In this document: piece by piece, positions 41,020-64,000 of the stretch
Layout of the letters: the number at the start of each line of letters is the position of its first letter
Numbering within the stretch: position 1 is the stretch's first letter
Position numbers and translations under genes: made by a program
Notes under the pieces: model-generated
What the model saw: the letters and a program-made list of their open reading frames with translations, nothing else
Told to the model about the DNA's origin: nothing
The model's database searches: none
NCBI GenBank assembly: GCA_016933275.1
Contig: JAFGBI010000225.1
Location: 94,622 to 158,621, forward strand
DNA from: Polyangiaceae bacterium
Lineage (GTDB): Bacteria; Myxococcota_A; Polyangia; Polyangiales; Polyangiaceae
Direction of reading: 5' to 3'
DNA: 64,000 nt

Positions 41020-41035
41020 TGTCCCCCGAGCTACG

Positions 41036-42253
41036 TCACCGCCCGCCCCCAACCGGTGCGGCGCGCGAAGGCCAAGCTGCGGCACCGAATCCAGCGGCAG
41101 GCCTGGCGATCAAGTAACCCTGGAACAGGTCGCAGCCGAGATCGAGCAGATTGTCCCGTTCGCCGGTGGTCTCGACGCCCTCCGCCACCACCGTCACGTC
41201 GAGCTCGTGGCAGAGCTTGACGATGCCATCGAGGATCTGCGCTTTTCTCCGGTCTTGGTCGACTCCCCGTACCAGAGACATGTCAATCTTCACGATATCC
41301 GGCTCGATCTGCGCGAACGTCGTCAAGCCCGCATACCCCGCCCCGAGGTCGTCCACGGCGACGCGGCATTCTCGCTCACGTAGCTGGGCAATCAGTCTAC
41401 GAGGATCGGGGAGGCGGTCCAGCGTCTCTCGCTCGGTCACTTCCAGGACCACACGCGCACCGTACACATCGAGCAGAGAGTCTTTGCTCAGAAGCGCCGG
41501 ATCACCAAGGTCGCTCGGATGGAGATTCACGAAGCAGGAAAGGCCCCCGGGAAGCTCGGGCAGCGATTCGGCGATGAGGGAGCGTGTGCGTCGGCCGACG
41601 TCGGGCAGTCTCCCGAGCCGCTCCGCGGCCGAGAGGATCGCTCCGGGATGGGGGAGCGCCGTCTCCCCCGAGCGCATGAGCGCTTCGTAGCCATAGAGCG
41701 AGCCGTCCCGTCGCACGATGGGCTGATACGCCATCCAGAGCCGCTCCAGCGTGCGGGTCAGGGCGAGGTCGAGCCCGATCAGGTCCCCGGGTTCCTCCGA
41801 AGGTCGGCCGAAGGCGGCCTGCGCCTCCCGTTTGAGGCGACCGAGCCGAGTCATGGCTCCGGCGCGCGCAACGACCTGGCGAATGGAGTCCGCCGCCTCC
41901 GCCTTCTCCAGGTAGTCGAACACCCCTAGTCGCAACGCCTCCACGGCGGAATCGACGTCTGGGCGCCCCGTAACGATGACGCACGCGACATCGAGGTGCT
42001 TCTCGCGGACCGCGCGGACGACGTTGAGCCCGTGCTCGCCAGGCAGCGTGAGATCTGCGAGCACGACATCGAACTCTGACGCGGTGAGCGCCTCGACCGC
42101 CCTGGCGACACTGTCAACCGCGATGACCTTGGCACCCCCGCCAGTTAGCCGCCGGGCAAACGCGCGGCGCACGGGTTCCTCGTCGTCGACGAGCAGGACG
42201 CGCAGCCCCTCCAGGGAAGGGGCGGCTCCCTGAGCTACGGCATCGGACGCCAT
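41036..42253 (-). CDS. REC-EAL protein, likely cyclic-di-GMP phosphodiesterase response regulator
   Basis: I start at ATG 42253 (MASDAVAQ); the track start 42508 runs into the divergent kinase gene's leader. REC domain about 16-130: VLLVDDEEP, VVLADLTLPGEHG (phospho-Asp), VTGRPDV and YLEKAEA lysine. A short linker leads to an EAL domain (about 165-400): YGYEALMRS (EAL motif), CFVNLHPSDL, VVLEVTERE, VAVDDLGAGYAGL, IVKIDMSLVRG, VVAEGVET and FQGYLIARP. All metal and substrate residues of active EAL enzymes appear present, so it should hydrolyse c-di-GMP under phosphorylation control. First gene of the operon with the two kinases. Confidence 0.9.
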   Translation of the reverse strand: MASDAVAQGAAPSLEGLRVLLVDDEEPVRRAFARRLTGGGAKVIAVDSVARAVEALTASEFDVVLADLTLPGEHGLNVVRAVREKHLDVACVIVTGRPDVDSAVEALRLGVFDYLEKAEAADSIRQVVARAGAMTRLGRLKREAQAAFGRPSEEPGDLIGLDLALTRTLERLWMAYQPIVRRDGSLYGYEALMRSGETALPHPGAILSAAERLGRLPDVGRRTRSLIAESLPELPGGLSCFVNLHPSDLGDPALLSKDSLLDVYGARVVLEVTERETLDRLPDPRRLIAQLRERECRVAVDDLGAGYAGLTTFAQIEPDIVKIDMSLVRGVDQDRRKAQILDGIVKLCHELDVTVVAEGVETTGERDNLLDLGCDLFQGYLIARPAAGFGAAAWPSRAAPVGGGR

Positions 42254-45514: not shown

Positions 45515-45632
45515 CTAGAGCACCGATCAGGTTGCCGACAGCGCCGGCAGCGGCAAGAAAGCGCCTGTGCGAAGCGGGGACGCTTCTCCAGCGCTGCCCG
45601 TGGCGAGATCTGCCGCCGGTTCGGTGCTCTAG
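45515..45632. repeat. CTAG-ended palindromic element, 118-base form
   Basis: It begins CTAGAGCACCGATCAGGTTGCC and ends GGTTCGGTGCTCTAG, exactly matching in length the first 118 bases of the 44050 element; the second hairpin is absent. The inner stem is degenerate here (GGCAGCGGCAAGAAAGCGCC / GCTTCTCCAGCGCTGCC). The TAG in its right terminus (45629-45631 on the minus strand) is the stop codon of the PAS/GAF hybrid kinase. Confidence 0.9.
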
Positions 45633-48600
45633 GTAGTCCCGTCCGTCCCGCGGTGGGACCTCGCGGCCAACGTCAGGTCGGCGACGAGACGACGGAGCTC
45701 CTGCCGCTCGAAGGGCTTCTCGAGACGCCGGTTCTCCGTCTTCGCCAGGTATTCGAGGGCGCTCGGCGTGAAGGCACCCCCGGTCATGAACACGAGCCGG
45801 TCCGCCAGGCCCGGCTCGAGCTTCACGATCCAGGAGTGAAGGTCCATCCCCGAGCACCCGGGCATCATGAGATCACAGAAGATCACGTCGAATCGGCGGT
45901 CCTGCTCGAGTAGTTCCTGCGCTTCATCGCCCGAGGCGACCGCCACGACGTCGTGTTCGTTGCCAAACAGCCGGAGGAAGATACCGCGAATCCCGGCCTC
46001 GTCGTCGACCACCAGGATGCGCCCGCGGGGCGCGGCCGTCGATGACGGCGAGACCCTGCGCGCCGGCTCCGCGCGGGTGTCGTCCGCGGTCGCGAGCGAA
46101 GCACCACGGTGCTGGGTCGCGCACGGCAGCTTGACCCAGAATCGGGTGGGCCGACCTGGCTCGCTCGAGAACCCGATCCGACCGCCGAAGCCATCCATGA
46201 TGTTACGACAGATGGCGAGGCCGAGGCCGGTGCCGACACCGACGCCCTTGGTAGTGAAGAAGGGCTCGAACAGCCGATCCTGGAGGTGGACCGGAACACC
46301 TCGGCCCGTATCGCTGACCTCCGCACAGACCCAGTCCCCGTCCCGCCAGGTTCGCACCCTGATCTCGTTCCCTTGGACGTCTCCTTCGTCGATCGCCTGC
46401 GCAGCGTTGAGCGCAAGGTTGAGGAAGACCTGCGCGAGCTTGCCGTCGACGGCGAGCACCTTGGGCACCGGCGCGAGATCCTTGACCAAGCGCGCCCGGT
46501 ACTTGATCGTGTTGCCCGCCATGCGCAACGCGGTCTCGATACTGTCGTTGAGATCGACGGGTGCAACGACCGCGCCGTCGGCACGAGAGAAGGTGGCGAG
46601 CCCTCGGGCGATCTCCCGGATGCGGTGCGCGCCATCGACGACCGAACCGAGGCTCTCCAAAACGTCGTCGAGTCTCGGGCGTTCCGGGGAAGGCGGTTCC
46701 ATTCGTCGTCCCGCCGGGATTGCCTCGGTTCCCGTCCGACCGGTGCTGGCGCCGGACCATCCGCGCAGATCCTCGAGGAGCCTCGGGAGATCCTCGGCCA
46801 GATCCTCCGCGCTGCAGAGCATGTACGCGAGAGGGTTGTTGATCTCGTGAGCCACCGCGGCAGCCATCATGCCCATGCTGATCAGACGATCCGACTGGGC
46901 CAGGCTCGCCTGGAGGTCACGGCGTGCCATCTCGGCCTGCTTGCGCTCGGTGATGTCGATCGTGTACCCGGCGAGGAGCATCTTCTCGCCAAAGGCGATG
47001 GGAAACTTTATGGTCGTGTAGTGACGATCGCCGAGATCCTCGTCGAGCTGGAGCACTTCGCCGTTCGCCACCACCTCCCAGTCATCGGCGCTGATCTTGG
47101 CCGCGAACTCCGGAGGGAACAGCTCCGGCATCGTCTTGCCCGCCATCTGCGACCCAGGCAGCCCGATCATGTCCTGGAAGCTCTCGCTCGCCACCAGAAC
47201 TCGACTCTCGTGGGGGGTCACGTCCTTGATGAATGCGTAGACGGGCGAGTGCTTCACGAACGCCGAAAGGAGCGCGTTGCTCTGGCTAACGACGTCCTCC
47301 GCTCGCTTCCGCTCCGCTATGTCCCAGGCGAGATCGGCGAGGAAGGACACCGCTTCGACGTCGCCCTCCGTGTACTCGGTCGCCTTGTTGCCGACGCCGA
47401 GGACGGCGACGACCCGCTCCGAACGAAGGACGGGCACGATGAGCTCGCGAACCAACGGGGTGTGTCCCTCGGGCAGCCCCCTCCAGTGCGGGAGGGAGGC
47501 GCAGTCGTTGTGCACGACAGGCCGCCGCTGGCGGACGCAGTCCGCCCACACTCCCGCCGTCTCGATGGGGTAGTGCAGTCCTTCCTTGTCGGTTCGACGG
47601 AAGTGGGCAACCGTACTCGTCGACCAGGCTTGCAGCGAGATGGTCTGCTCTCCGTCTTCGACGAAATGGAGGAAGCCCGCGTGGCTTTCCGTGAGCCGCT
47701 CTACTTCGTCCAGGGTTCGCTGCAGCAGCTCGTGGAGCGAGTGCGCCCCGGCGAACTCATGCAGGCGGAGGCGCAGTCTGGTAAGCTCGGCGCCGCGCCT
47801 CTCTTCGGTGACGTCGTGGCAGATCCCCTCGATGGCCACGAGTCGGGTGTCCTCGAAGACGGGGTGCTGGGTGACCTCGATCGTCCGCTTGGTGCCCTCC
47901 GAACGAGCCACGACCATCTCCACGATTTCGGGGGGCTCTCCCGGGGAATGCACGTCGTCGCCGGCTTCCGTGGGTCGAATCGACGAGAGGTCCAGGCCGA
48001 GCTCACGCCAGTCGTGCCCCACGACCTCCTCGGGGCTCCTCCCGATGAGGGCCCGGATGCTCGGGCTCGCGTAGCTGACTTCGCCATCCAGCTTCCGGGA
48101 GAACACCGCGTACCGACTCCCGAGCCCCTCGATGAGGCGACGGTACTTTGCCTCCGACTGCTCCAGCCGCGCCTGGTCCCTGCGCTGCTCGGTGACGTCG
48201 TGGGCAATGGACAGCGCACCGACCACCGCTCCGGCCTCGTCCTTCAGCACGCGGCACCACCACGCGAGCAGGCGCTTCTCCCCGTCGCGACGCCGCTGCC
48301 AGCTCTCGACGTAGTAGGTCTGCTCGTCACCGTCGAACAGGGGACCCACGTGATCGTAGGTGGCCTGCGCACCTTCGAAGAAATCCCTCGCCTCCTTGCC
48401 CAAGACGTCGTTGCCGAAAAACTCTCGGCCGGCGTCGTTGGTCCAGGTGTAGATTCTGCGCGCGTCCACCTCCATGATGATGTCCGGCAGGGCAGCGAGC
48501 AGGGACTCGTAGCGCTGCAGCAACGAAACCCTGGCGTGTTCGGCGGCGCGCGCCGCGCTTCGGTCCCGAATCAGCAGGACGAGACCGGCGACGATCCCCT

Positions 48601-48952
48601 GTTCGTCACGGATGGACGCGGTCGAGCCCGCGATGGATCGCTCCTGCCCATCGCGAGCAACCAGGAGGCCTGGCTGGAGCGCCATTGGCCCCTGGCCCGC
48701 CTCGGGGGGCATCCGCGCGAAGGGACTGACCAGCGGCGCGCGCGTCCCCTCGCCGACGACGCGAAAAATCTCGTCGAGGGGCCGGCCGCGAGCCTCGGCG
48801 GCGGTCCATCCGGTCAGCGCTTCCGCGGCCGGATTCATGAACTCGACGAAGCCTCGTACGTCGGTCGAGATCACCGCGTCCCCGATGCTGCGCAGGATCG
48901 CGGCGAACAGCCCCCCCTGGGCGGTCACGACCGTCGGTGTTGCCTCCCGCAT
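45629..48952 (-). CDS. Multi-PAS/GAF hybrid histidine kinase with C-terminal receiver
   Basis: Start ATG 48952 (MREATPTVV) has GGAGGG 5 bases upstream; the track start 49063 has none. 1107 residues, no TM. Domain order: PAS (SIGDAVISTDVRGFVEFMNP), PAS (LPDIIMEVDARRIYTWTNDA), PAS (YASPSIRALIGRSPEEVVGHD), GAF (about 390-540, ESHAGFLHFVEDGEQTISL), PAS (FVKHSPVYAFIKD), HisKA (AAVAHEINNPLAYM), HATPase (LNLALNAAQAIDEG, DTGRGVP, VGTGLGLAICRNIM) and REC (ILVVDDEAG, FCDLMMPGCSG, EKPFE). It integrates several soluble signals. The stop codon sits in the CTAG end of a repeat element. Confidence 0.9.
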   Translation of the reverse strand: MREATPTVVTAQGGLFAAILRSIGDAVISTDVRGFVEFMNPAAEALTGWTAAEARGRPLDEIFRVVGEGTRAPLVSPFARMPPEAGQGPMALQPGLLVARDGQERSIAGSTASIRDEQGIVAGLVLLIRDRSAARAAEHARVSLLQRYESLLAALPDIIMEVDARRIYTWTNDAGREFFGNDVLGKEARDFFEGAQATYDHVGPLFDGDEQTYYVESWQRRRDGEKRLLAWWCRVLKDEAGAVVGALSIAHDVTEQRRDQARLEQSEAKYRRLIEGLGSRYAVFSRKLDGEVSYASPSIRALIGRSPEEVVGHDWRELGLDLSSIRPTEAGDDVHSPGEPPEIVEMVVARSEGTKRTIEVTQHPVFEDTRLVAIEGICHDVTEERRGAELTRLRLRLHEFAGAHSLHELLQRTLDEVERLTESHAGFLHFVEDGEQTISLQAWSTSTVAHFRRTDKEGLHYPIETAGVWADCVRQRRPVVHNDCASLPHWRGLPEGHTPLVRELIVPVLRSERVVAVLGVGNKATEYTEGDVEAVSFLADLAWDIAERKRAEDVVSQSNALLSAFVKHSPVYAFIKDVTPHESRVLVASESFQDMIGLPGSQMAGKTMPELFPPEFAAKISADDWEVVANGEVLQLDEDLGDRHYTTIKFPIAFGEKMLLAGYTIDITERKQAEMARRDLQASLAQSDRLISMGMMAAAVAHEINNPLAYMLCSAEDLAEDLPRLLEDLRGWSGASTGRTGTEAIPAGRRMEPPSPERPRLDDVLESLGSVVDGAHRIREIARGLATFSRADGAVVAPVDLNDSIETALRMAGNTIKYRARLVKDLAPVPKVLAVDGKLAQVFLNLALNAAQAIDEGDVQGNEIRVRTWRDGDWVCAEVSDTGRGVPVHLQDRLFEPFFTTKGVGVGTGLGLAICRNIMDGFGGRIGFSSEPGRPTRFWVKLPCATQHRGASLATADDTRAEPARRVSPSSTAAPRGRILVVDDEAGIRGIFLRLFGNEHDVVAVASGDEAQELLEQDRRFDVIFCDLMMPGCSGMDLHSWIVKLEPGLADRLVFMTGGAFTPSALEYLAKTENRRLEKPFERQELRRLVADLTLAARSHRGTDGTT

Positions 48953-49227
48953 GGGTCCCTCCGCGGCCAATGGTGACGGATCCTTGCCCGAAAAGCGATC
49001 CGAGCGGAGAGCCCGGACGATCCGACGGCGCTCGGGACGCCGTCCACGGGTCGTCAGCGGCACGCCGTGGCGGTCCTCTCCCTACCGAGAGGTCGACCGA
49101 GCAAGGATCGGTGACCGAGACGGTCTGCTGCCGACCCCAAAACCCAGCTGCCCGACCCGGCAGAGCCCTACCGATCCTGCAGAGAGGGCGTCACTCGTGG
49201 GGTGACCAACCTTCCTTGGCCCCTTGG

Positions 49228-50940
49228 CTAGAACGGGTACTCCGTCACCAGGCCGGGGGCGGTCTTGGCAGGCGCGGACGGTGCCGCCGCCGGGCTCCTT
49301 CGCGCAGAATCGACCATGAGCGTTGGCTTCGGCGGCAGGCTGGACCCTGTTGGCCGCGGGTCCGTCCTGGCAGTGGCGGCCGTCGCTACCTCCGCGGTCG
49401 GTGATGGGGAGCTCGCTGCACGGGCGGCGAGCGGCGGACGTTCGCCGCTCGCGCTGGCGTCGCCCTTCACGAGCGGCACGACGACCCCGCGGTCGCGGTC
49501 GGGCGTAACGGTGAGGGTGACCGGCGCGAACCCCGCGGCGAGGACGTCGACGGCAACGGGCCTCGTGCCACGCGGAACACCGCGCCGCGCCGGACGATCG
49601 GCCACGAGCTCTCCCCCAACCAGAATGCGTGCGGGTACGGGCGGCTGGAGCTGTACGTCGATCTGCACTAGATCCGGAGGGGACGGTGGGGTAGCCGCGG
49701 GCTCCACGGCGACCGGGGGCGCCTCCACCACGACGTCGCCACCCATCAGCGCGATGGCCGTGACGATGCCGAACACCAGGAGCAGCCCGGCGACGGCCAA
49801 CGGAGTCATCCGCTGGCGCCAAGCCCGCGGGAGCGCCACGGGAGCCGGCACGAGGACGGCATCGTCGGTCTGGCGGTCGTCCAGCGCGCGGAGCTCAGCG
49901 ACGGCTTGCGCGAGCTCCCGACGCTCCTCGACGAAGAGGGTATCGAGGATCTCGGCGAGACGCTCGCGCTGATCGTTACGTCCGCTCGCCTGGACGACAC
50001 CGTCGAGGTCGCGAGCGAGCTCGGCCGCGGACTCCTGACGAGCATCGGGGTCCACCGCGAGCGCTCGCGAGAGGACGGGCGCAAGCCCGGTGGGTGGATG
50101 GCGGCGCTCGGCGAAGAGCTCCGCGGGAGCTCCCCGGAGGACCCTCCCGAGCGTGTCAGCCTCATCCACCCCGTCGAACAGGGGACGGCCGTGCACCCCC
50201 TCGCCGAGGGTGGCGCCGAGCGCGAAGACGTCCACTCGGTGGTCGAGCGCGCGCCCCAGCGCCTGCTCGGGCGCCATGTACCGGTACTTGCCCTTGATGT
50301 GCCCGAGGGCCGTGGTGGTCATTCGACCGACGGCACGCGCGATGCCGAAGTCGATCACCTTGACGTGCCCCTCGTAGGTGACAAACACGTTCTCGGGGCT
50401 CACGTCGCGATGCACGAGGGCGACCGGAGCGCCCTGGTCATCCGCGAGCTGGTGCGCGTGATGCAGCGCCTCGGCCACCCGCGCGCCGATGAAGGCGAGG
50501 ACGTCCGGGGGCAGGGCGCCACCCCGCGTGGAAAGAGCCCGATAGAGGTGCGACAGCGGCTGTCCGTCGAGATACTCCATGGCGATGAACAGCACGTCGC
50601 CTTCCCGCCCGAGCTCGTAGACGTGCACCACGTTCGGGTGCGCGAGGCGCGCGGCGAGCCTGGCCTCGTCGAGGAACATGGCAACGAATTCGGGCTCGTC
50701 CGCGAGGTGCTCGTGGATCACCTTGACCGCGGCGATGCGCTCGAACTGGTGCGGCCCGCTGAAGCGGGCAAGGTAGACGGTCGCGGCACCGCCGGCCCCC
50801 AGGCGGGCACCGAGGCGAAACCGGCCCACCCGTGTGCCCGAGAGGCGGCCTCGTCGCCTGAGCCCAGCCGCGCCAGCCGTGGATCGAACGGGGGACTCCC
50901 GGTCCTCGCTGGCCAGCTCCCGCCAGACACGCGCGCTCAC
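49228..50940 (-). CDS. Membrane Ser/Thr protein kinase with PEGA-like periplasmic domain
   Basis: GTG 50940 overlaps the stop of the upstream lipoprotein gene (GTGA). Kinase domain about 40-300 with LGAGGAATVYLARF, IAAVKVI, VHRDVSPENV, VIDFGIARA, YRYMAPEQA and DVFALGATLGE. A helical linker (ERLAEILDTLFVEERRELAQAVAELRAL) precedes one TM (MTPLAVAGLLLVFGIVTAIALMGG, about 380), a PEGA-like domain (VPARILVGGELVADRPARRGVPRG), and a Pro/Ala tail. The HRDVSPEN variant is typical of one large myxobacterial kinase family. The gap 48953-49227 holds no gene. Confidence 0.9.
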   Translation of the reverse strand: MSARVWRELASEDRESPVRSTAGAAGLRRRGRLSGTRVGRFRLGARLGAGGAATVYLARFSGPHQFERIAAVKVIHEHLADEPEFVAMFLDEARLAARLAHPNVVHVYELGREGDVLFIAMEYLDGQPLSHLYRALSTRGGALPPDVLAFIGARVAEALHHAHQLADDQGAPVALVHRDVSPENVFVTYEGHVKVIDFGIARAVGRMTTTALGHIKGKYRYMAPEQALGRALDHRVDVFALGATLGEGVHGRPLFDGVDEADTLGRVLRGAPAELFAERRHPPTGLAPVLSRALAVDPDARQESAAELARDLDGVVQASGRNDQRERLAEILDTLFVEERRELAQAVAELRALDDRQTDDAVLVPAPVALPRAWRQRMTPLAVAGLLLVFGIVTAIALMGGDVVVEAPPVAVEPAATPPSPPDLVQIDVQLQPPVPARILVGGELVADRPARRGVPRGTRPVAVDVLAAGFAPVTLTVTPDRDRGVVVPLVKGDASASGERPPLAARAASSPSPTAEVATAATARTDPRPTGSSLPPKPTLMVDSARRSPAAAPSAPAKTAPGLVTEYPF

Positions 50941-53737: not shown

Positions 53738-54436
53738 GTGAAGCTCAACCAAGGCGAGGCCGCCAATCTGGTCGGCGTCTCGGAAGGAGCCATCATCCGA
53801 CTCGCCAAGGACGGCGCCATCCCCTGCCAGCGTCTGGAGGGTGAATACTGGTTCCACCGCGCCGAGCTCCTGGAGTGGGCCACCGCGCGCGGGTTCGCCG
53901 TGGCCACCGACGCCTTCTCGGCGTCCCGCCGCGCCAACGACCTGCCCCTCCCGCGGTTCGCGCACGCGCTCCAGATCGGAGGGATCCACCACGGCATCAC
54001 TGCGCGCAACCGTGACGAGGCGTTGCGCGCGGTGGTCGATTGCCTTCCGGTGGAGGACGAGAGCGAACGCGAGCTCCTGCTTGCCGTGATGGCCGCCCGG
54101 GAGGCGATGGGCTCGACGGGCATCGGGGACGGGATTGCCATCCCGCACGCCCGCGCCCCTGTCCTGCTCGAGACCCGTAACCCTTCGATCGTGCTCTGTT
54201 TCCTCGAGCAGCCGGTCTCGTTCGGCGCCGTCGACGGACGCCCCGTACACACGCTCTTCTCGATGGTCACCCACACCGTCCGCTCACACCTCCACCTGCT
54301 CGCTCGCCTCGCTGCGTCCCTGCGAGACCCGGACTTTCGCCGCACCGTCCTCGAGCGAGCGCCCGCTCCCCGGATCCTGGCCGAGGCGACGCGCGTGGAG
54401 CTCCAGCTCGGCCATCCGGGACCGGAGGAGCGATGA
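53738..54436 (+). CDS. HTH (excisionase/MerR-like) protein fused to a PTS EIIA (PtsN-type) domain
   Basis: GTG 53738. Residues 1-50 are an excisionase-type winged HTH (MKLNQGEAANLVGVSEGAIIRLAKDGAIP, LEGEYWFHRAELLEWA). Residues 80-225 are an EIIA fructose/Ntr domain: IHHGI at the start, LLLAVMAAREAMGSTGIGDGIAIPHARAP with the phospho-accepting His in IPHAR, and LHLLARLAASLRDPDF. Such fusions can link nitrogen-PTS phosphorylation to other targets. The gene is on the same strand just before the Ehr complex genes with a 43-base gap, so it is probably the first gene of that operon and may regulate it or sense energy state. Confidence 0.85.
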   Translation: MKLNQGEAANLVGVSEGAIIRLAKDGAIPCQRLEGEYWFHRAELLEWATARGFAVATDAFSASRRANDLPLPRFAHALQIGGIHHGITARNRDEALRAVVDCLPVEDESERELLLAVMAAREAMGSTGIGDGIAIPHARAPVLLETRNPSIVLCFLEQPVSFGAVDGRPVHTLFSMVTHTVRSHLHLLARLAASLRDPDFRRTVLERAPAPRILAEATRVELQLGHPGPEER

Positions 54437-54479
54437 GCGCACCGTGCGGCTGTACAAGCCTCCCCGTCCGAGGACGAGC

Positions 54480-56444
54480 GTGAACGAGCTCTTGGTACTC
54501 TGTGCGATCGGGATCGTGGCCACGAGCGGGCTCGGCGCGCTCCCGTTCGGGACGCGTTCGGTGACGGGTGACCGGATCTTCGCGGCGTGGTTCGGGGCCG
54601 GGGCGGGGCTCGGCGCCGTCGCAGCAGGACGCGCCCTCGCGGGTGTCCCGGCCACCCCGATATCCCTACCCTGGCAGGTGCCGGGCGGTGAGCTCGCGAT
54701 CGCGCTCGATGCGCTGTCGGCGGTGTTCTTGCTCCAGATCTGCCTGGTGGGGAGCCTCGGCACGGTCTTCGGCCTCGCCTACTGGTCCGCGCGGGAGCAT
54801 CCGGAGTCGGCGGCCCAGCTCCGCGTCTTCTATGGGCTCCTGGTCGCGGGGATCGCGCTCCTCCTCGTCGCCAAGAACGCGGTCCTGTTCCTCGTCGGCT
54901 GGGAGATCATGGCCCTCGCCGCGTTCTTCGCCATCACCACCGACGACACCGACGCCGAGGTCCGCGCGAGTGGGTACGTCTACCTCGTCGCCACGCGCGT
55001 CGGCTCGCTCTTCCTCATCGCGACGTTCGCGGTGCTCCGCTCGTTGACGGGGTCGTTCTCACTCGCCATCACTGGACTCTCGGGAGACACGGCGGCGGGA
55101 ACCGCGATCTTCGCGTGCGGACTCGTCGGGTTCGGAATGAAAGCCGGGATGATGCCCCTCCATGTCTGGCTCCCTGGCGCGCACGCCAACGCGCCGAGCC
55201 ACGTCTCGGCCCTGATGAGCGGCGTGCTGATCAAGATGGGCATCTACGGCCTCTTCCGGATCACGGGCTGGTTCTCGACCGTGCCGCTCGCCTGGGGGCT
55301 CGCGCTGTTCGCGCTCGGTGCGTTGTCCGCGGTCCTCGGCGTCGCCTTCGCGCTCGGACAGCACGATCTCAAGCGCCTCCTCGCGTACCACAGCGTCGAG
55401 AACATCGGGATCATCGGGATGGGGCTCGGGATCGCCCTCATTGGGCGTTCGCTCCAGCAGCCGACGCTGGTCGCCCTAGGGTTCGCTGGTTCACTGCTCC
55501 ACGTGTTCAACCACGGCCTCTTCAAATCGCTCCTCTTCTTCGCCGCCGGTGCCACCATCCGCGCGACCCACACCCGCGAGATCGATCGCCTCGGCGGACT
55601 CATCCGGCAAATGCCACGAACCGCCGTCGCCTTCCTCGTGGGGGCGGTGGCGATCTCGGGGCTCCCGCCGCTCAACGGCTTCGTGAGCGAGCTCTTCCTC
55701 TATCTCGCGATGTTCCGCTCCCAAACGCTCGATCTCGGCGCCGCCGGGCTCTTCGTCGCGCTCGGCGCCCCGGTGCTCGCCCTGGTCGGCGCGCTCGCCG
55801 TTGCCTGCTTCGCAAAGGTCTTCGGCATCGTGTTCTTGGGGCTCCCACGCGCCCCCCAACCCGCGAACCTTCGCGACGCGCCCCCGGCGATGCTGGCGCC
55901 GATGGTGGTGCTCGGGCTAGCCTGCGTCGCGATCGGCGTCGTACCGAGTTGGGTCGGCCCGCTGCTCGAGCGGAGCCTCGCCGCGTGGACGGGGGAGCCC
56001 ACGTCACTCGTGGGGCTAGCCCCGCTCTCGACCCTCTCGTGGCTGAATGCCCTACTGCTCGCCAGCCTCCTGGTCTTCGGTTTCGCCCTCGTGTCGGCGA
56101 CCGCGAGGAAGGCCGACCGCCAACCAACCTGGGACTGCGGCTACGCAGCGCCGACGCCCCGCATGCAGTACACGGCGTCCTCCTTCGCGGACGGCCTCGT
56201 CGAGCTCTTCTCCCACGTACTCCGCCCGGAACGCCACACGGCCCTCATCGACGGCCCGTTCCCGCGGCCGAGCTCCTTCTCGAGCCACGTCCCCGATCTC
56301 GTGCTCGACCGGATCCTGACCCCCGTGGCCGCGCGCCTGGCGCGCGGCGCCACGTGGTTCCGCTGGATCCAGCGGGGAACCGTGCACCTCTATCTGCTCT
56401 ACCTGCTCGTCACGTTGATCCTCATGTTCGTCGTGTGGCGCTAG
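54480..56444 (+). CDS. hyfB: HyfB/HycC-like proton-pumping subunit (NuoL/M family)
   Basis: GTG 54480 with GAGGA 5 bases upstream; GTG 54444 is an alternative, and the track start 54135 lies inside the previous gene. 654 residues, about 16 TM helices. The proton-channel core keeps VGWEIMALAAFFAI (Glu of TM5), GFGMKAGMMPLHVWLPGAHANAPSHVSALMSG (Lys of TM7 and the broken helix), HDLKRLLAYHSVENIG and LLHVFNHGLFKSLLFFAAGA. The C-terminus has the WDCGYAAPTPRMQYTASSF block specific to HyfB/HycC rather than NuoL. It is the antiporter-like pump of a membrane-bound complex. Confidence 0.9.
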   Translation: MNELLVLCAIGIVATSGLGALPFGTRSVTGDRIFAAWFGAGAGLGAVAAGRALAGVPATPISLPWQVPGGELAIALDALSAVFLLQICLVGSLGTVFGLAYWSAREHPESAAQLRVFYGLLVAGIALLLVAKNAVLFLVGWEIMALAAFFAITTDDTDAEVRASGYVYLVATRVGSLFLIATFAVLRSLTGSFSLAITGLSGDTAAGTAIFACGLVGFGMKAGMMPLHVWLPGAHANAPSHVSALMSGVLIKMGIYGLFRITGWFSTVPLAWGLALFALGALSAVLGVAFALGQHDLKRLLAYHSVENIGIIGMGLGIALIGRSLQQPTLVALGFAGSLLHVFNHGLFKSLLFFAAGATIRATHTREIDRLGGLIRQMPRTAVAFLVGAVAISGLPPLNGFVSELFLYLAMFRSQTLDLGAAGLFVALGAPVLALVGALAVACFAKVFGIVFLGLPRAPQPANLRDAPPAMLAPMVVLGLACVAIGVVPSWVGPLLERSLAAWTGEPTSLVGLAPLSTLSWLNALLLASLLVFGFALVSATARKADRQPTWDCGYAAPTPRMQYTASSFADGLVELFSHVLRPERHTALIDGPFPRPSSFSSHVPDLVLDRILTPVAARLARGATWFRWIQRGTVHLYLLYLLVTLILMFVVWR

Positions 56445-56457
56445 GAGGCGCCATCCC

Positions 56458-57372
56458 TTGCCCGTCCACCAGGTCGTCCTCCACCTTCTCTGCCTGCTGA
56501 CGCTGCCGCCGCTTCTGGTCGGCATCATCGTCAAGGTCAAGGCGCTCTTCGCGGGACGCGTCGGGGCGCCGCTCCTCCAGCCGTACCTCGACCTGTTCCG
56601 CCTCTACCGGAAGGGCACCGTCCTCAGCAGGACCTCGACATGGCTCTTCGTCGCCAGCCCCGTGGTGGCGATCGTGACCATGCTGCTCGCGGGTCTCCTC
56701 GTGCCCTTCGGGTACCCGAGCGCGCCCCTCGCCTTCACCGGGGACTTGGTGCTCTTCGCCTACCTCCTCGGGCTCGCGCGGTTCTTCACCCTGCTCGCGG
56801 CCCTCGACACGGGATCGGCCTTCGAAGGGATGGGTGCCGCCCGAGAAGCCACCTGGGCCTCGCTCGCCGAGCCGGCGCTCTTCCTTGGCCTGCTCGCGCT
56901 CGTGCGGCGCTCCGGCTCGATGTCCCTGTCCACCGTGCTCGACGTGTCGCTGGATCGTGGCTGGGGCGAGAGCTCCGCGGTGCTCTTGCTGGTCTTCGTC
57001 AGCCTCTTCGTGGTGTTCCTGGCGGAGAACTGCCGCATCCCGTTCGATGATCCGAACACCCACCTCGAGCTTACGATGATCCACGAGGCGATGGTGCTCG
57101 ATCACAGCGGTCCCGCCCTCGGTCTCATCCTCCAGGGCGCGGCCACCAAGCTCTTCGTCCTCGGCGCCCTGGTCGTGCACACCATCCTGCCCATGAGTCG
57201 GGGCTCGAGCGTCGTTGGCTGGGCGAGCTTCCTCGGGGCGATGATCGGGCTGGCCGTGGCGGTCGGCGTCATCGAATCGACCATGGCCCGCGTCCGCATG
57301 AAACGCGTCGCTAGCCTGCTCATCGCCGCATGCGTACTCGCCGGCTTCGGCGTGATCCTGACCGCGAGGTAG
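56458..57372 (+). CDS. hyfC: HyfC/HycD-like membrane subunit (NuoH family)
   Basis: TTG 56458, 13 bases after the HyfB stop. 304 residues, eight TM helices. NuoH-family hallmarks: GRVGAPLLQPYLDLFRLYRKG after TM1, AENCRIPFDDPNTHLELTMIHEAMVLDHSGP in the central loop, where the conserved Glu/Asp residues form the link between the catalytic subunit and the membrane. It should anchor the large subunit and pass charge to the pumps. Next gene begins 2 bases after the stop. Confidence 0.9.
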   Translation: MPVHQVVLHLLCLLTLPPLLVGIIVKVKALFAGRVGAPLLQPYLDLFRLYRKGTVLSRTSTWLFVASPVVAIVTMLLAGLLVPFGYPSAPLAFTGDLVLFAYLLGLARFFTLLAALDTGSAFEGMGAAREATWASLAEPALFLGLLALVRRSGSMSLSTVLDVSLDRGWGESSAVLLLVFVSLFVVFLAENCRIPFDDPNTHLELTMIHEAMVLDHSGPALGLILQGAATKLFVLGALVVHTILPMSRGSSVVGWASFLGAMIGLAVAVGVIESTMARVRMKRVASLLIAACVLAGFGVILTAR

Positions 57373-57374
57373 TC

Positions 57375-58019
57375 GTGACCGCCCTCGTCGATAGTCTCCT
57401 CATCCTCGTCCTACTCCTGAACTTCTTCTCGCTGGGAACGACCCGCGTGAAGGCGCTGATCAACGGCTCGGCCGCGCAAGGGGTGGTGATCGGCTTCGTG
57501 GCCCTGTTCTCGCAAGGCGAGCTCACCGTCGAGACGGCGGTGGTGGCGGTGAGCGCAGTGACGCTCAAGGGGATCGTCATCCCTCGCCTGCTGCTGCGCG
57601 CCCTTCGCGACGTGCGCATTCGGCAGAACATCGAGCCCTTCATCGACTACGTCCCCTCCTTGCTCATGGGCGCGGTGGGTAGCGGCCTCGCGATCCTCTT
57701 CGCGAACACCCTCCCGCTCGCCCCGGAGCACGAGGGCGCGCTCCTCGTCCCCACCTCACTCTCGACCGTGCTCACCGGATTCCTCCTCCTTACCACGCGG
57801 CGGAAGGCGATCAGCCAAGTCATCGGCTACCTCGTGCTGGAAAACGGGGTGTTCATCCTGGGCCTCACGCTGGTCGGCGCCATGCCGTTCCTGGTCGAGC
57901 TCGGCGTCCTTCTGGATCTGCTCGTCGGAATCTTCGTCATGGGCATCATGGTCAACCACATCGGCCGCGAGTTCTCGTCGCTCGACACCTCCCGCCTCGC
58001 TCAGCTCAAGGAGGAGTAG
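57375..58019 (+). CDS. hyfE: HyfE-like small membrane subunit (NuoK-related)
   Basis: GTG 57375 with GAGG 5 bases upstream and 2 bases after the previous stop; the track start 57330 overlaps the previous gene. 214 residues with six TM helices. HyfE signature near the C-terminus: VIGYLVLENGVFILGL (TM Glu) and FLVELGVLLDLLVGIFVMGIMV. HyfE combines a NuoK-like unit with extra helices. Confidence 0.9.
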   Translation: MTALVDSLLILVLLLNFFSLGTTRVKALINGSAAQGVVIGFVALFSQGELTVETAVVAVSAVTLKGIVIPRLLLRALRDVRIRQNIEPFIDYVPSLLMGAVGSGLAILFANTLPLAPEHEGALLVPTSLSTVLTGFLLLTTRRKAISQVIGYLVLENGVFILGLTLVGAMPFLVELGVLLDLLVGIFVMGIMVNHIGREFSSLDTSRLAQLKEE

Positions 58020-58022
58020 GCG

Positions 58023-59453
58023 GTGGCCCTGGCGCTAGTCCTCGTTCCGTGGTGCTTCGCGGCGGTGATCTTCGCGATCCGAGGGCAGCGTGCCCGCCCC
58101 TACCTCGTGGCCGCCGGAACATTGGTGCAGGCGATCCTGGTCCTGATTGCGCTGTTCCTGCCGGAGGTCACCGCGATCGAGGGATGGCTCCGTCTCGACG
58201 CCCTCGGCCGGCTCGTCCTCGGCACGACCACGGTGCTCCTTCTGGCAACCGCCGTATACCTTCCCGCCTACCTCGAGCAGCACCCCACCAAGTCGAACCG
58301 CGGTTTCTGCACCTGCATGATGGCGTTCGCCGGGGTCGTCGGCCTGATGACGCAGGCGTACCACCTGGGGCTGCTCTGGGTCGGGCTCGAGGCGAGCACC
58401 CTGGCGGTCGCGCCGCTCATCTACTTTCACCGCACGCCACGCTCCCTGGAGGCGGTGTGGAAGTACCTGCTCATCGGCTCGGTGGGGATCGCGCTGGCCC
58501 TGTTCGGTTCCTTTTTGCTTGGCTATGCGGTGCTCCACGGGGGCGGGCATCCCTCGCTCCTGCTCCCGGACCTCGTCGCGAGCGCGCCGAGGATGTCACG
58601 TCCCTGGCTGCATGCCGCGCTGCTCGTGTTGCTCGTCGGCTATGGCACCAAGATGGGGCTTGCCCCGATGCACACGTGGAAGCCGGACGCCTACGGCGAG
58701 GCACCCGGCGTGGCCGGCGCGCTGCTCGCGGGGGCCGTGACCAACTGTGCGTTCCTGGCGGTGCTACGGGTCCATCGCGTCGCGGTCGCCGCGGGCGAGG
58801 CCGATTTCGCCCGTCGACCGCTGCTCGCGCTCGGCCTCCTTTCCATGCTCGTCGCTGGCATCTTCACGGTGCGCCAGAAGGACTACAAGCGCCTGCTCGC
58901 CTACTCGAGTGTCGAGCACATGGGGATCCTGGCCATCGGGATCGGCATCGGAGGTGGGGCCGTATTCGGGGCGCTGCTCCACATGGTGAACAACGCCCTC
59001 GCCAAGGGGACGCTGTTCCTCACGGCCGGAAACCTGCACCGAGCCTTCGGCAGCAAGTCAACCGACCAGGTGAGGGGGGCCATCCGGCGGGTTCCGGCCT
59101 CTGCAGCGCTGCTCCTGGCCGGATTCTTCGCGATCACGGGGTCACCTCCGTTCGGACCGTTCCTGAGTGAGCTCACCATAGTCGGCGCTGCGATCGACCG
59201 CGGACACATCCTGGTGGCGGGCACCTTCCTCGCCCTCCTCGCCGCCGTGTTCGTCGGCATGGGGGCCACGATGCTCGCCGTCGTGCAGGGCAACGCGGAT
59301 GGGACCGACTCGACCCCGCCTGTCCGCGAACCGGTGGCGCTGGTGGCCCCCGCCGCCTGCCTTCTCTGCCTCGTGCTCCTCCTCGGGCTCCACGTCCCCG
59401 AGCCCCTCGCCGCACTGCTTCGAGAGGCCGCCGCCGAGCTGGATGCGCCATGA
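58023..59453 (+). CDS. hyfF: HyfF-like proton-pumping subunit (NuoN/M family)
   Basis: GTG 58023, 3 bases after the HyfE stop. 476 residues, about 14 TM helices. Antiporter-like motifs: LGLLWVGLEASTLAVAPLIYF (Glu), VGYGTKMGLAPMHTWKPDAYGEAPGVAGALLAG (Lys), KDYKRLLAYSSVEHMGILAIGIG and LLHMVNNALAKGTLFLTAGN, all diagnostic of HyfF and absent in NuoN. The second pump of the complex. The stop overlaps the start of the large subunit (ATGA). Confidence 0.9.
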   Translation: MALALVLVPWCFAAVIFAIRGQRARPYLVAAGTLVQAILVLIALFLPEVTAIEGWLRLDALGRLVLGTTTVLLLATAVYLPAYLEQHPTKSNRGFCTCMMAFAGVVGLMTQAYHLGLLWVGLEASTLAVAPLIYFHRTPRSLEAVWKYLLIGSVGIALALFGSFLLGYAVLHGGGHPSLLLPDLVASAPRMSRPWLHAALLVLLVGYGTKMGLAPMHTWKPDAYGEAPGVAGALLAGAVTNCAFLAVLRVHRVAVAAGEADFARRPLLALGLLSMLVAGIFTVRQKDYKRLLAYSSVEHMGILAIGIGIGGGAVFGALLHMVNNALAKGTLFLTAGNLHRAFGSKSTDQVRGAIRRVPASAALLLAGFFAITGSPPFGPFLSELTIVGAAIDRGHILVAGTFLALLAAVFVGMGATMLAVVQGNADGTDSTPPVREPVALVAPAACLLCLVLLLGLHVPEPLAALLREAAAELDAP

Positions 59454-61063
59454 CCCGCAGCGACGAGCAAGATCCCGGCCGAGACGGCAACGATCCGGGC
59501 GCCCTCGGCGGCGAAGGACGCGTCGATCCCCGGGCGCATGAGCCGGGACCCGCGCTCGCCGCGTTCCGCAACGGGCGGTCGCTGGCGCTCGAGGAGATCC
59601 CGGTGCTCTCGCTCGAAGAGCTCCGCAATGCCGTGATCCAGGCGCCGAACGGCCATGGCCGAGTGTCAGCGCTCTTCGCTGTACCCGCGGCCGATGGGTT
59701 CACGCTCTATGCCGTGTTGTCCTGCGAGGCCGATGGCCTGATCCGCGTGGGGCGCGCCGCGCTCGCCGAGCCGAGCTTTCCGTCGATGACCCCAGAATGC
59801 CCGCAGGTGCACCTCTTCGAGCGGGTGCTCGCCGAGCGCTGGGGCCTCGTGCCCGAGCAACACCCCTGGCTGAAGCCCGTCCGCTTCGCTCCGCCTTGGA
59901 GCCGAGAGCCAGACCTCGACCCCCCTCTCTCCGCCGAGCGCTCCGCCATCGCCCTCGAGCATCCATATCGCATCGACGGCTCCTCCGTGCACGAGGTCGC
60001 CGTCGGCCCCGTCCACGCCGGAGTGATCGAACCCGGGCATTTTCGCTTCCAGTGCCACGGAGAGCTGGTAATGCACCTCGAGATCAGCCTCGGCTACCAG
60101 CACCGCGGGATCGACCGCGCGCTCGCCGGCGGTCCGGCGCCACGCACCATCCCCTACGTGGAAACCCTCGCGGGGGACACGACGATCGGACACACCCTCG
60201 CCCATTGCGAGCTCGTCGAGGCGCTCTCGGCGACCCGGGTGCCGCCGCGGGCGCTCTCGATTCGGGCGATCGCGCTCGAGCTCGAGCGGCTCGCCAACCA
60301 CGTGGGTGATCTCGGCGCGCTCGCCGGCGATGTGGGCTACCTGCCAACGGCGTCCTTCTGCGGCCGCCTACGCGGCGATCTCCTCAACCTCTCGGCGGCC
60401 CTCTGTGGCAGCCGGTTCGGGCGTGGGCTGGTCCGTCCCGGAGGGGTCGCCTTCGACCTCGAGCCGGAGCGCGTCGAGCGGATCGCCAAGGGCCTCGAGG
60501 CGACGCTCGGCGACGTCGGGAGCGCGGTGACCCTGCTCTGGGAGAGCCCCTCGGTGATGGAGCGCTTCGAGAACACCGGCGTCCTGACGCCCGACACCGC
60601 CGACGCGCTCGGCCTCGTGGGAGTCGTGGCCCGAGCCGCTGGCCTCGACCGCGACGTGCGCCACGACTTCCCCGCCGGGATGTACCGCCTCGCACAGATC
60701 CCGACCTCGGTGGCCCGCACCGGCGACGTGTTCGCCCGGGCCTATGTCCGCTGGCTCGAGGTTCAGCGTTCGGGAAGGTTCCTCCACGAGCAACTCCGTG
60801 CACTCCCTGCCGGCCCCGTTCGACGGCCCGCCGCCGAGCTTCGTCCGGGCCGCCTCGCCGTCTCGCTCGTCGAGGGTTGGCGCGGCGAGATCTGCCACGT
60901 CGCCATCACCGACGCCCAGGGCCGCTTCGCCGCCTACGAGGTCGTCGACCCCTCCTTCCACAATTGGACGGGCCTCGCCCTCGCCCTCCGCGACCAGGCT
61001 ATCTCCGATTTCCCTCTCTGCAACAAGAGCTTCAACCTCTCGTACTGCGGCCACGACCTCTGA
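59450..61063 (+). CDS. HyfG/HycE-like large subunit (NuoC-NuoD fusion) lacking nickel-binding cysteines (Ehr-type)
   Basis: ATG 59450 overlaps HyfF by ATGA. 537 residues: NuoC-like part (about 40-160) then NuoD/large-subunit part. In [NiFe] hydrogenases the L1 motif RxCGxC and the L2 motif DPCxxC bind nickel. Here L1 reads ETLAGDTTIGH (Cys to Ala and Thr, about 234) and L2 reads DPSFHNW (Cys to Ser and Asn, about 498). The flanking fold is well kept (HLEISLGYQHRGIDRAL; ELERLANHVGDLGALAGDVGY; FPLCNKSFNLSYCGHDL). It cannot hold a NiFe centre; such proteins define energy-converting hydrogenase-related (Ehr) complexes. The real electron donor or acceptor is unknown. Confidence 0.9.
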   Translation: MTRSDEQDPGRDGNDPGALGGEGRVDPRAHEPGPALAAFRNGRSLALEEIPVLSLEELRNAVIQAPNGHGRVSALFAVPAADGFTLYAVLSCEADGLIRVGRAALAEPSFPSMTPECPQVHLFERVLAERWGLVPEQHPWLKPVRFAPPWSREPDLDPPLSAERSAIALEHPYRIDGSSVHEVAVGPVHAGVIEPGHFRFQCHGELVMHLEISLGYQHRGIDRALAGGPAPRTIPYVETLAGDTTIGHTLAHCELVEALSATRVPPRALSIRAIALELERLANHVGDLGALAGDVGYLPTASFCGRLRGDLLNLSAALCGSRFGRGLVRPGGVAFDLEPERVERIAKGLEATLGDVGSAVTLLWESPSVMERFENTGVLTPDTADALGLVGVVARAAGLDRDVRHDFPAGMYRLAQIPTSVARTGDVFARAYVRWLEVQRSGRFLHEQLRALPAGPVRRPAAELRPGRLAVSLVEGWRGEICHVAITDAQGRFAAYEVVDPSFHNWTGLALALRDQAISDFPLCNKSFNLSYCGHDL

Positions 61064-61072
61064 GGGACGAAC

Positions 61073-61840
61073 GTGTTCAAAGAGCTCTTCGCCCGCGCCC
61101 GTCAGGGCCACCACACCATCCCCTACCCGCGGTCGCTCCCGGTCCTCCCCGACCGCCTCCGCGCCGCCCCAGAGCTCGACCCCGCGCGCTGTCCGGCGGA
61201 CTGCCGCGCCTGCGTCGAGACCTGCCCGACCGCCGCCATCCTGCGCGACGCCACCGGCCCCATCCTCGATCTTGGCCGATGCCTCTTCTGCGGTGACTGC
61301 GCCGCCGCCTGCCCCGCAAACGCCCTGCGCTTCACTCCCGACCACCGCCTCGCCACCCGCAGTCGCGAGGCCCTGGTCCTCCGTGACCGCCAGCACCGCG
61401 GTGATCTCCGCCTCGAAGCGGCCCGTCGCAGGCTCTTCGGCCGCTCGCTGAAGCTCCGCCAAGTGAGCGCCGCCGGCTGCAACGCTTGCGAGGCGGACCT
61501 CAACGTCCTGACCACTATCGGCTTCGACCTCGGCCGCTTCGGGATCCAGTTCGTCGCCTCGCCGCGCCACGCAGACGGCATCGTCGTCACCGGGCCGGTG
61601 TCCGAGAACATGAAGCTTGCCCTCGAGAAGACCTACGCTGCCGTCCCTGCCCCGAAGCTCGTCATCGCCGTCGGCGCCTGCGCCATCGCGGGCGGTCCGT
61701 TCGCAGGGCACGCCGAGGTCCGCGGTGGCGTATCGGCAGCAATCCCGGTACCGATCGATCTATTCGTCCCCGGTTGCCCGCCGCATCCGATGACGATCCT
61801 CGATGGACTGCTCGGACTGCTCGGGAGAGGCCCTCGCTAG
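61073..61840 (+). CDS. hyfI: Ferredoxin-HyfI fusion: iron-sulfur electron-transfer small subunit
   Basis: GTG 61073, 9 bases after the large-subunit stop. 255 residues fusing two proteins usually separate (HyfH and HyfI). The N-terminal ferredoxin has CPADCRACVETCP and CLFCGDCAAACP for two 4Fe-4S clusters. The C-terminal NuoB-like part has AAGCNACEADLN, GACAIAGGPF and PGCPPHP, giving the cysteines of the proximal 4Fe-4S cluster. Electrons would flow ferredoxin domain to NuoB-like cluster to the Cys-less large subunit. Last gene of the operon. Confidence 0.9.
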   Translation: MFKELFARARQGHHTIPYPRSLPVLPDRLRAAPELDPARCPADCRACVETCPTAAILRDATGPILDLGRCLFCGDCAAACPANALRFTPDHRLATRSREALVLRDRQHRGDLRLEAARRRLFGRSLKLRQVSAAGCNACEADLNVLTTIGFDLGRFGIQFVASPRHADGIVVTGPVSENMKLALEKTYAAVPAPKLVIAVGACAIAGGPFAGHAEVRGGVSAAIPVPIDLFVPGCPPHPMTILDGLLGLLGRGPR

Positions 61841-62607: not shown

Positions 62608-64000
62608 CTACTTTCTCCGAGTCACTCGCCGCCGCGCGACGGCGAACGCCAGCCCCGCCAGGGCGAGGAACCCAGCCCCGGACGATGGCCTCTGACCAGC
62701 GGTCCGACAGCCACAGCCTCCCTTCTTGCCATCCTTGCCGTCTTCCCCGTCTTCCCCATCCTGTACCGTGGCGCTCGCGCCGTCCTCGCAAGAAATGGTC
62801 TGGGTACCATCTTCGTTGTCGATGACCGTGCAGGAAGACCCGTCCTCGCCGTCGGCGATGGTGACGCTCGTACCATCGGTGCACGAAATGGTCGCCGTCC
62901 CATCGTCGTTGTCCGCGACCGTGCAGGGGGAAGTCCCGACGGCGGCGCCCGCGCCGCCGGCTCCGCCGGCACCGCCGTGCAGAACGACCGGCAACGATAC
63001 GCGGGTGCCATCCTCGCAAGACAGCGTTGCGGTCCCATCGCCGTTGTCGGTGACGGTACAGCTCGTGCCATCGGTGCCGTCGGTCCCGTCCATGCCGTCG
63101 GTCCCGTCCATGCCGTCGGTCCCGTTGGCCCCGTCGGCCCCGTCAGCGCCGTCAGCGATCGTCGCCGAGGTGCCGTCCTCGCAGCTGATGGTGGCGGTCC
63201 CGTCGTCGTTGTCGCTCACAGAGCAGCTGGTGCCGTCCACGCCATCCGCTCCATCCGAGACGACGACCGAGGTGCCGTCCTCGCAGCTCACGGTGGCGGT
63301 CCCATCGCCGTTGTCGCTCACGGTGCAATTGGCGCCATCTGCACCGTCGGAGACGGTGGCCGAGGTGCCGTCGTCACAGCTGATGGTGGCGGTCCCATCG
63401 CCGTTGTCGCTCACGGTGCAGCTGGTCCCGTCGAGCCCGTTGGTGCCGTCGATACCCTCGGTGATGACGACCGAGGTGCCGTCGTCGCAGGCGACGGTGG
63501 CGGTCCCATCGCCGTTGTCGCTCACGGTGCAGCTCGTGCCATCGAGCCCATTGGTGCCATCAGCGCCGTCGTAGACGGTGGCGGAGGTGCCGTCGTCGCA
63601 GCTGATGGTCGCCGAACCATCCCCGTTGTCACTGACGGCGCAGCTCGTCCCGTCGAGCCCGTTGGTGCCATCGAGCCCGTCAGCACCGTCGTAGACGGTG
63701 GCGGAGGTCCCGTCCTCGCAGCTGATGGTCGCCGAACCATCCCCGTTGTCGGCGACGGTGCAGCTGGTCCCGTCGAGCCCGTTGGTGCCATCGAGCCCGT
63801 CGGTGCCATCGATCCCGTCGGTGCCATCGATCCCGTCGGCGCCATCGTAGACGGTCGCGGAGGTCCCGTCCTCGCAGCTGATGGTCGCCGAGCCATCCCC
63901 GTTGTCCGCGACGGTGCAGTTCGTGCCGTCGATCCCGTTCGTGCCGTCGATCCCGTTCGTGCCGTCGATCCCGTTCGTGCCGTCGATCCCGTTCGTGCCG
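62608..64000 (-). CDS. Repetitive surface protein with MYXO-CTERM anchor (partial, start lies beyond the right edge)
   Basis: The track shows 62608..63525, but the frame is open to base 64000 and continues beyond. It consists of repeats of about 30-45 residues: DGTSCTVSDNGDGTATISC, DDGTSATVSDGADG and collagen-like (D/N)G(T/I/L/M) triplets. Each repeat has two cysteines and Asp/Gly/Asn-rich loops likely to bind calcium. The C-terminus has KKGGCGCRTAG, a hydrophobic segment (GFLALAGLAFAVA) and RRRVTRRK: the MYXO-CTERM sorting signal cut by myxosortase and attached to the cell surface. ORF 63522..63896 and the plus-strand ORF 62726..63574 are shadows. Function likely adhesion or matrix. Confidence 0.85.
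   Translation of the reverse strand, partial: GTNGIDGTNGIDGTNGIDGTNGIDGTNCTVADNGDGSATISCEDGTSATVYDGADGIDGTDGIDGTDGLDGTNGLDGTSCTVADNGDGSATISCEDGTSATVYDGADGLDGTNGLDGTSCAVSDNGDGSATISCDDGTSATVYDGADGTNGLDGTSCTVSDNGDGTATVACDDGTSVVITEGIDGTNGLDGTSCTVSDNGDGTATISCDDGTSATVSDGADGANCTVSDNGDGTATVSCEDGTSVVVSDGADGVDGTSCSVSDNDDGTATISCEDGTSATIADGADGADGANGTDGMDGTDGMDGTDGTDGTSCTVTDNGDGTATLSCEDGTRVSLPVVLHGGAGGAGGAGAAVGTSPCTVADNDDGTATISCTDGTSVTIADGEDGSSCTVIDNEDGTQTISCEDGASATVQDGEDGEDGKDGKKGGCGCRTAGQRPSSGAGFLALAGLAFAVARRRVTRRK

What the first reader, a model, noticed from the sequence alone, without database searches (positions are those of the whole stretch)
53738..61840. Ehr-type complex I-like membrane complex lacking all four nickel cysteines
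The large subunit has L1 AGDT in place of CGxC and L2 DPSFHN in place of DPCxxC, while two pump subunits (HyfB, HyfF), HyfC, HyfE and the Fe-S subunit are intact. Ehr complexes are described as an evolutionary link between group 4 hydrogenases and complex I, with unknown reaction. This one is complete in seven genes and includes a regulator.
Basis: partly seen in the sequence, partly recalled or inferred. Interest (0 to 1): 0.65.

Follow-up and report, generated by a model that had tools for sequence, protein, structure and literature searches.

The report
Nickel-free hydrogenase-like membrane complex (Ehr)
A myxobacterial-type genome carries an intact seven-gene set for a proton-pump-like relative of hydrogenases and respiratory complex I that has lost its nickel site; such complexes are already known and widespread, but what they react with is still unknown, and the conserved residues found here narrow the possibilities.

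Summary
The seven genes are real and intact: regulator, HyfB, HyfC, HyfE, HyfF, HyfG (fused NuoC/NuoD-type large subunit) and a fused ferredoxin/NuoB-type Fe-S subunit. It is an ordinary, well-conserved Ehr complex; at least 557 relatives were found. True L2 is the protein's last residues, NLSYCGHDL, against HycE DPCYSCTDR. HycE C241/C244/C531/C534 become A241/T244/S531/G534, and the protein ends where mature HycE ends. The site is not degenerate: proton-wire residues E194, H284, R395, E437 and R478, all 12 Fe-S cysteines and the pump lysines/glutamates are kept, and D243 is invariant. The complex I quinone ligands (His, Tyr) are absent, and the proximal cluster is hydrogenase-type, unlike complex I or MBS. 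Two less familiar points: an HTH-EIIA(Ntr) protein heads 53 of 67 Ehr operons, and one sister complex (L104) still has all four cysteines. Best reading: a low-potential donor, probably ferredoxin, drives reduction of an unidentified non-H+ acceptor in the rebuilt pocket, coupled to ion pumping. New member of a known kind.

The parts
53738..54436 (+). Regulator (232 aa): HTH_17 DNA-binding domain (nt ~53753-53890) plus PTS EIIA-Ntr-type domain (nt ~53984-54352; phospho-acceptor His137 at 54146-54148)
   Evidence: Pfam HTH_17 1.9e-7 and PTS_EIIA_2 5.1e-22; His137, His184 and Arg121 invariant in 51 homologues; first gene in 53 of 67 Ehr loci with at least 1 kb upstream
54444..56444 (+). HyfB, antiporter-like (NuoL/M-type) pump subunit; GTG start inferred
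   Evidence: NCBIfam hydrogenase 4 subunit B 1.2e-173; E154, K233, K264, K361 invariant in 75 sequences
56458..57372 (+). HyfC, NuoH-type membrane anchor
   Evidence: Pfam NADHdh 4.2e-35; charged residues invariant or nearly so in 67 sequences
57375..58019 (+). HyfE, membrane subunit with NuoK-like part
   Evidence: NCBIfam hydrogenase 4 membrane subunit 8.6e-21
58023..59453 (+). HyfF, second antiporter-like pump subunit
   Evidence: NCBIfam hydrogenase 4 subunit F 3.3e-88; E123, K210, K289, K328 invariant
59450..61063 (+). HyfG/EhrL large subunit (537 aa), NuoC-like N-terminus fused to NuoD/hydrogenase-large-subunit domain
   Evidence: Complex1_49kDa 3.4e-34; best solved relative FHL HycE 8.3e-39; best fold match HycE 7z0s_E, E 1.7e-25
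60029..60031 (+). Glu194, equivalent of the proton-gate Glu193 of HycE (kept)
   Evidence: role in HycE from PMC9474812
60170..60181 (+). L1: A241-G242-D243-T244 in place of HycE C241-G-I-C244
   Evidence: D243 invariant in 82 relatives
60947..60964 (+).
61034..61060 (+). True L2 and C-terminus: N529-L-S531-Y-C533-G534-H-D-L537-stop in place of HycE D529-P-C531-Y-S-C534-T-D-R537
   Evidence: S531 and G534 invariant in 82 relatives
61073..61840 (+). Fe-S subunit: two ferredoxin-type [4Fe-4S] motifs (nt ~61190-61312) fused to a NuoB/HycG-type proximal-cluster domain (Cys at nt ~61478-61777)
   Evidence: Oxidored_q6 1.9e-25 and Fer4_7 4.8e-8; all 12 ligand Cys present in 76-79 of 79 sequences

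Best explanation
An intact Ehr complex of the complex I / group 4 hydrogenase superfamily. Shown from sequence: an electron chain of three predicted [4Fe-4S] clusters leads to a pocket derived from the [NiFe] site that has lost all four nickel ligands and the cleavable tail, but keeps the hydrogenase-type proton wire (E194, H284, R395, E437, R478) and has new invariant polar residues (D243, S531, plus N525 and K526). The membrane arm has two antiporter-like subunits with intact pump residues. Inferred: a soluble low-potential carrier, most likely reduced ferredoxin, delivers electrons at the ferredoxin-like domain, since no dedicated dehydrogenase gene travels with the operon. Two electrons and protons meet at the rebuilt pocket to reduce a small acceptor other than H+, and the reaction drives ion translocation through HyfC, HyfE, HyfB and HyfF. 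Expression is probably tuned by the HTH-EIIA protein according to phosphotransferase (PEP/nitrogen) state. The acceptor is not identified.
For: Domains and gene order; residue mapping to HycE with roles from the FHL structure paper (PMC9474812); conservation in 82 large subunits, 79 Fe-S subunits and 62-75 pump subunits; no recurrent partner gene; purifying selection; regulatory PTS genes present in the assembly, with rpoN, PtsN, HprK, RapZ, HPr and EI on contig C390.
Against: Donor, acceptor, pumping and regulation are all untested. The pocket could not be modelled: loops 150-203 and 519-537 have pLDDT below 50. The canopy Asp529, strictly conserved elsewhere (PMC9474812), is Asn here. A quinone bound in a different way is not excluded. 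In other lineages Ehr has been proposed to pair with a formate dehydrogenase (PMC6349859).
Confidence: 0.5

Rival explanations
1. Ferredoxin:quinone oxidoreductase, working like photosynthetic NDH-1 or complex I, with the former nickel pocket as a quinone site.
For: Fold and subunits shared with complex I; D294, the equivalent of Nqo4 Asp139, is invariant as in NuoD.
Against: The quinone-binding His (Nqo4 H38, here I193) and Tyr (Y87, here G242) are absent; the proximal cluster has CxxC, not the tandem CC of complex I (PMC9474812).
Confidence: 0.28
2. Polysulfide (sulfane) reductase like Pyrococcus MBS, with catalysis at an incompletely ligated proximal cluster.
For: MBS is the characterised case in which partial loss of nickel Cys gave a new reaction (PMC7684303).
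Against: MBS has a 3-Cys proximal cluster in a hydrophobic pocket; here all four cluster Cys and the hydrogenase-type CxxC are kept, and the pocket is polar with a proton wire.
Confidence: 0.07
3. A non-cysteine metal site (for example D243, S531, T244 and neighbouring His/Cys) replaces [NiFe].
For: D243, S531 and G534 are invariant in the window clade, as are C202 and C524; no maturation or cleavage would be needed.
Against: C202, C319, C524 and C533 are not kept across wider Ehr; H189, E194 and H197 are shared with nickel enzymes, so they are not a new site; no reliable model of the pocket.
Confidence: 0.1
4. Still a hydrogenase, for example making H2 from formate as suggested from Geobacter proteomics.
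For: Ehr subunits rise on formate in G. sulfurreducens (PMC7894505).
Against: The four Ni/Fe ligands are absent in every relative checked in this clade, apart from a lone Cys at position 241 in 3 of 82; no maturation protease tail; HypD not nearby.
Confidence: 0.02
5. Degenerate remnant, or a plain ion antiporter with no redox role.
For: Loss of a cofactor; antiporter-like subunits present.
Against: dN/dS about 0.17; catalytic-pocket and Fe-S residues are among the most conserved.
Confidence: 0.03

Closest known systems
[quoted passage not shown] Geobacter sulfurreducens GSU0739-0745 and M. tuberculosis Rv0081-Rv0087
   Same: Same kind of subunit set, no nickel ligands, antiporter-like subunits; described as of unknown function (PMC7894505, PMC6728331, PMC10284858). 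A Geobacteraceae locus (L045) has the same order including the regulator, with a second HyfB.
   Different: Many relatives carry a second HyfB (about 18-19 of 67 loci); this one has a single HyfB. The named Geobacter and M. tuberculosis loci were not compared by sequence here.
E. coli formate hydrogenlyase / hydrogenase-4 (HycE, HyfG)
   Same: Best sequence and fold match to the large subunit; same fused NuoC/NuoD form; same proton-wire residues.
   Different: No nickel ligands, no cleavable tail, Fe-S subunit fused, no HycB/FdhF partner.
Respiratory complex I / NDH-1
   Same: Shared core of NuoB, C, D, H, I, K and antiporter-like subunits.
   Different: No NADH module; quinone His and Tyr absent; CxxC instead of CC at the proximal cluster.
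Pyrococcus MBS sulfane reductase
   Same: Another nickel-free relative of group 4 hydrogenases.
   Different: MBS keeps two nickel Cys and has a 3-Cys proximal cluster; here none and four.

Membership tests
Ehr complexes | Large subunit related to group 4 hydrogenases but without the four Ni/Fe-binding Cys | tested here: met
Ehr complexes | Antiporter-like membrane subunits plus NuoH-like and Fe-S subunits in one operon | tested here: met
Ehr complexes | Large subunit groups apart from NuoD and from Cys-bearing hydrogenases | tested here: met
   22 Ehr rows form one side of a branch, support 100/99; named published Ehr proteins were not in the tree
[NiFe] group 4 hydrogenase | CxxC at L1 and at L2 | tested here: not met
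   AGDT and SYCG; no PF00374 match to the window protein, while the sister L104 matches
[NiFe] group 4 hydrogenase | Hyp maturation genes nearby | tested here: not met
   single HypD is on contig C101; no recurrent neighbour. Some true hydrogenases also lack nearby hyp genes, so weak.
Respiratory complex I | Quinone-site His and Tyr in the NuoD subunit | tested here: not met
   I193 and G242
Respiratory complex I | NADH-oxidising module (NuoE, F, G) | tested here: not met
   absent from the operon and from recurrent neighbours
MBS sulfane reductase | Proximal cluster ligated by only three Cys | tested here: not met
   four Cys conserved with CxxC spacing
Any of these | Reaction catalysed and ions moved | not testable with these tools
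   needs the purified complex

The most novel reading that the evidence does not exclude
Ehr is a distinct class of ion-pumping enzyme in which the hydrogenase pocket, kept with its proton wire but without any metal, reduces an as yet unknown acceptor, under control of a dedicated DNA-binding PTS EIIA sensor that ties it to the PEP/nitrogen phosphorelay.
Probability: 0.3. Interest if true: 0.75.

Novelty: new member of a known kind. Interest (0 to 1): 0.4.

Why it matters
Ehr complexes occur in many phyla and are reported in M. tuberculosis, yet their reaction is unknown. The residue map here argues against three ready answers (hydrogenase, complex I-type quinone reductase, MBS-type sulfur reductase) and points to a specific pocket with a proton wire and no known metal ligands. 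The frequent HTH-EIIA partner gives a physiological handle on when the complex is used, and the Cys-bearing sister complex gives a natural comparison for how nickel was lost.

Tried and rejected
Conserved cysteines as substitute ligands: rejected, none holds across Ehr. Dedicated electron-input partner: no gene family recurs beside the operon in more than three of the loci examined (many loci are short or near a contig end). Sigma-54 promoter upstream of the regulator, suggested by the PTS-Ntr link: none found in 31 loci. AlphaFold model of the large subunit: overall fold good (pLDDT 76.7, TM 0.75 to HycE), but both pocket loops unreliable and no coordinates available for distances. Papers linking EIIA proteins to Ehr: none found with the terms tried. 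The second structure job was not used.

Full report
What is there. Seven collinear genes on the + strand, 53738-61840: an HTH_17 plus PTS EIIA protein, HyfB, HyfC, HyfE, HyfF, a fused NuoC/NuoD-type large subunit (HyfG) and a fused ferredoxin/NuoB-type Fe-S protein. The large subunit's best solved relative is HycE of E. coli formate hydrogenlyase, which is also its best fold match.

L1 (AGDT) is right. The stated L2 is not: DPSFHN at residues 500-505 aligns with HycE AATYAN and NuoCD TPSFAH, about 30 residues before the real site. True L2 is the extreme C-terminus, NLSYCGHDL, against DPCYSCTDR of HycE. The four nickel ligands of HycE, C241, C244, C531 and C534, are A, T, S and G here. The numbering happens to be identical, and the protein stops at residue 537, the equivalent of HycE R537, after which hydrogenases carry a tail that is cleaved during maturation (cleavage site from general knowledge). 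So no maturation protease would be needed.

The site is rebuilt, not decayed. In 82 large subunits (the others at about 56-63% identity to the window), S531 and G534 never vary and D243 is invariant. The residues that the FHL structure paper assigns to proton transfer in HycE (E193, H284, R395, E437, R478; PMC9474812) are all kept (E194, H284, R395, E437, R478). The canopy Asp529, said there to be strictly conserved, is Asn in the window and most close relatives, and Asp in some subclades. Conserved cysteines C202, C319, C524 and C533 are clade features only: C533 is A or S in several loci and C202/C524 are V/I in L130, so they are not universal replacement ligands.

What it is probably not. 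The complex I quinone ligands (His and Tyr of NuoD) are I193 and G242. The proximal cluster motif is C136-x-x-C139 plus C203 and C235, the hydrogenase arrangement, not the tandem CC of complex I nor the three-Cys cluster of MBS (PMC9474812, PMC7684303). All 12 Fe-S ligands and the pump Lys/Glu of HyfB and HyfF are conserved. A second copy in the same assembly (contig C266, 84-87% identical depending on the region compared) shows dN 0.090, dS 0.536, ratio 0.17, so the protein is under purifying selection; the copy may be a paralogue or a related strain in the bin.

Origin. In a 32-sequence tree the 22 Ehr proteins form one group (100/99). With L105 they join L104, a Myxococcota-phylum protein that still has CGVC and CYAC, matches the nickel-hydrogenase Pfam model, and shares the HAGIIEPGHFRF and NKSF motifs of Ehr. 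This fits loss of nickel from a Cys-bearing ancestor. It rests on a single such sequence among the loci examined and on a tree without published Ehr, Mbh or Mbx proteins.

Operon and regulator. Of 67 Ehr loci with at least 1 kb upstream, 53 begin with the HTH-EIIA protein; about 18-19 have a second HyfB, so the number of pump subunits varies (some could be split reading frames). The EIIA phospho-acceptor His137, second His184 and Arg121 are invariant in 51 sequences, so it looks phosphorylatable. The assembly has a regulatory PTS set on contig C390: rpoN, a separate PtsN, HprK, RapZ, HPr and EI. No partner gene recurs beside the operon, which favours a soluble donor such as ferredoxin. Target and signal of the regulator are untested; no sigma-54 motif was found upstream.

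Maturation genes. HypD is on contig C101; nickel-hydrogenase family genes are on C44 and C352. The genome can therefore probably make [NiFe] enzymes, but nothing ties that to this operon.

Known or new. Papers describe Ehr as lacking the metal-binding Cys with unknown function (PMC6349859, PMC7304191, PMC10284858, PMC4378227, PMC6728331), use it as a negative class in HydDB (PMC5037454), and report it more abundant on formate in Geobacter (PMC7894505). This locus is a new member of that kind. I found no paper on the HTH-EIIA association with the terms tried, which does not show it is unreported.

Noticed in passing
window 29450-30877 (+): Reverse transcriptase (Pfam RVT_1 2.1e-14; PADLOC generic RT 1e-25, weaker to UG26 and UG4), followed directly by an unidentified 690-aa ORF at 30874-32946.
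   Followed up: partly
window 62608-64000 (-): Asp/Gly-rich repetitive protein with repeats of about 90-160 nt, running off the window end.
   Followed up: no
window 3924-7178 (+) and 26910-29225 (+): CapC (capsule biosynthesis) domain protein, and a protein with a STIG1-like domain.
   Followed up: no
window 39196-41085 (-), 45629-49063 (-), 49228-50940 (-): Two hybrid histidine kinases and a Ser/Thr protein kinase upstream of the Ehr operon.
   Followed up: no
L104:1008-2618 and 2284-3492: Ehr-like large subunit with all four nickel cysteines (CGVC, CYAC) and a fused Fe-S subunit whose ferredoxin part looks reduced; candidate Cys-bearing sister of Ehr.
   Followed up: partly
L130 / L155 (G296:C464): A second Ehr type with LINKSFNLSYSGHDL C-terminus, lacking C202, C524 and C533, in the same phylum.
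   Followed up: partly
L123 (G000:C266:1-4183): Second Ehr copy in the same assembly, 84-87% identical to the window's; paralogue or strain mixture not resolved.
   Followed up: partly
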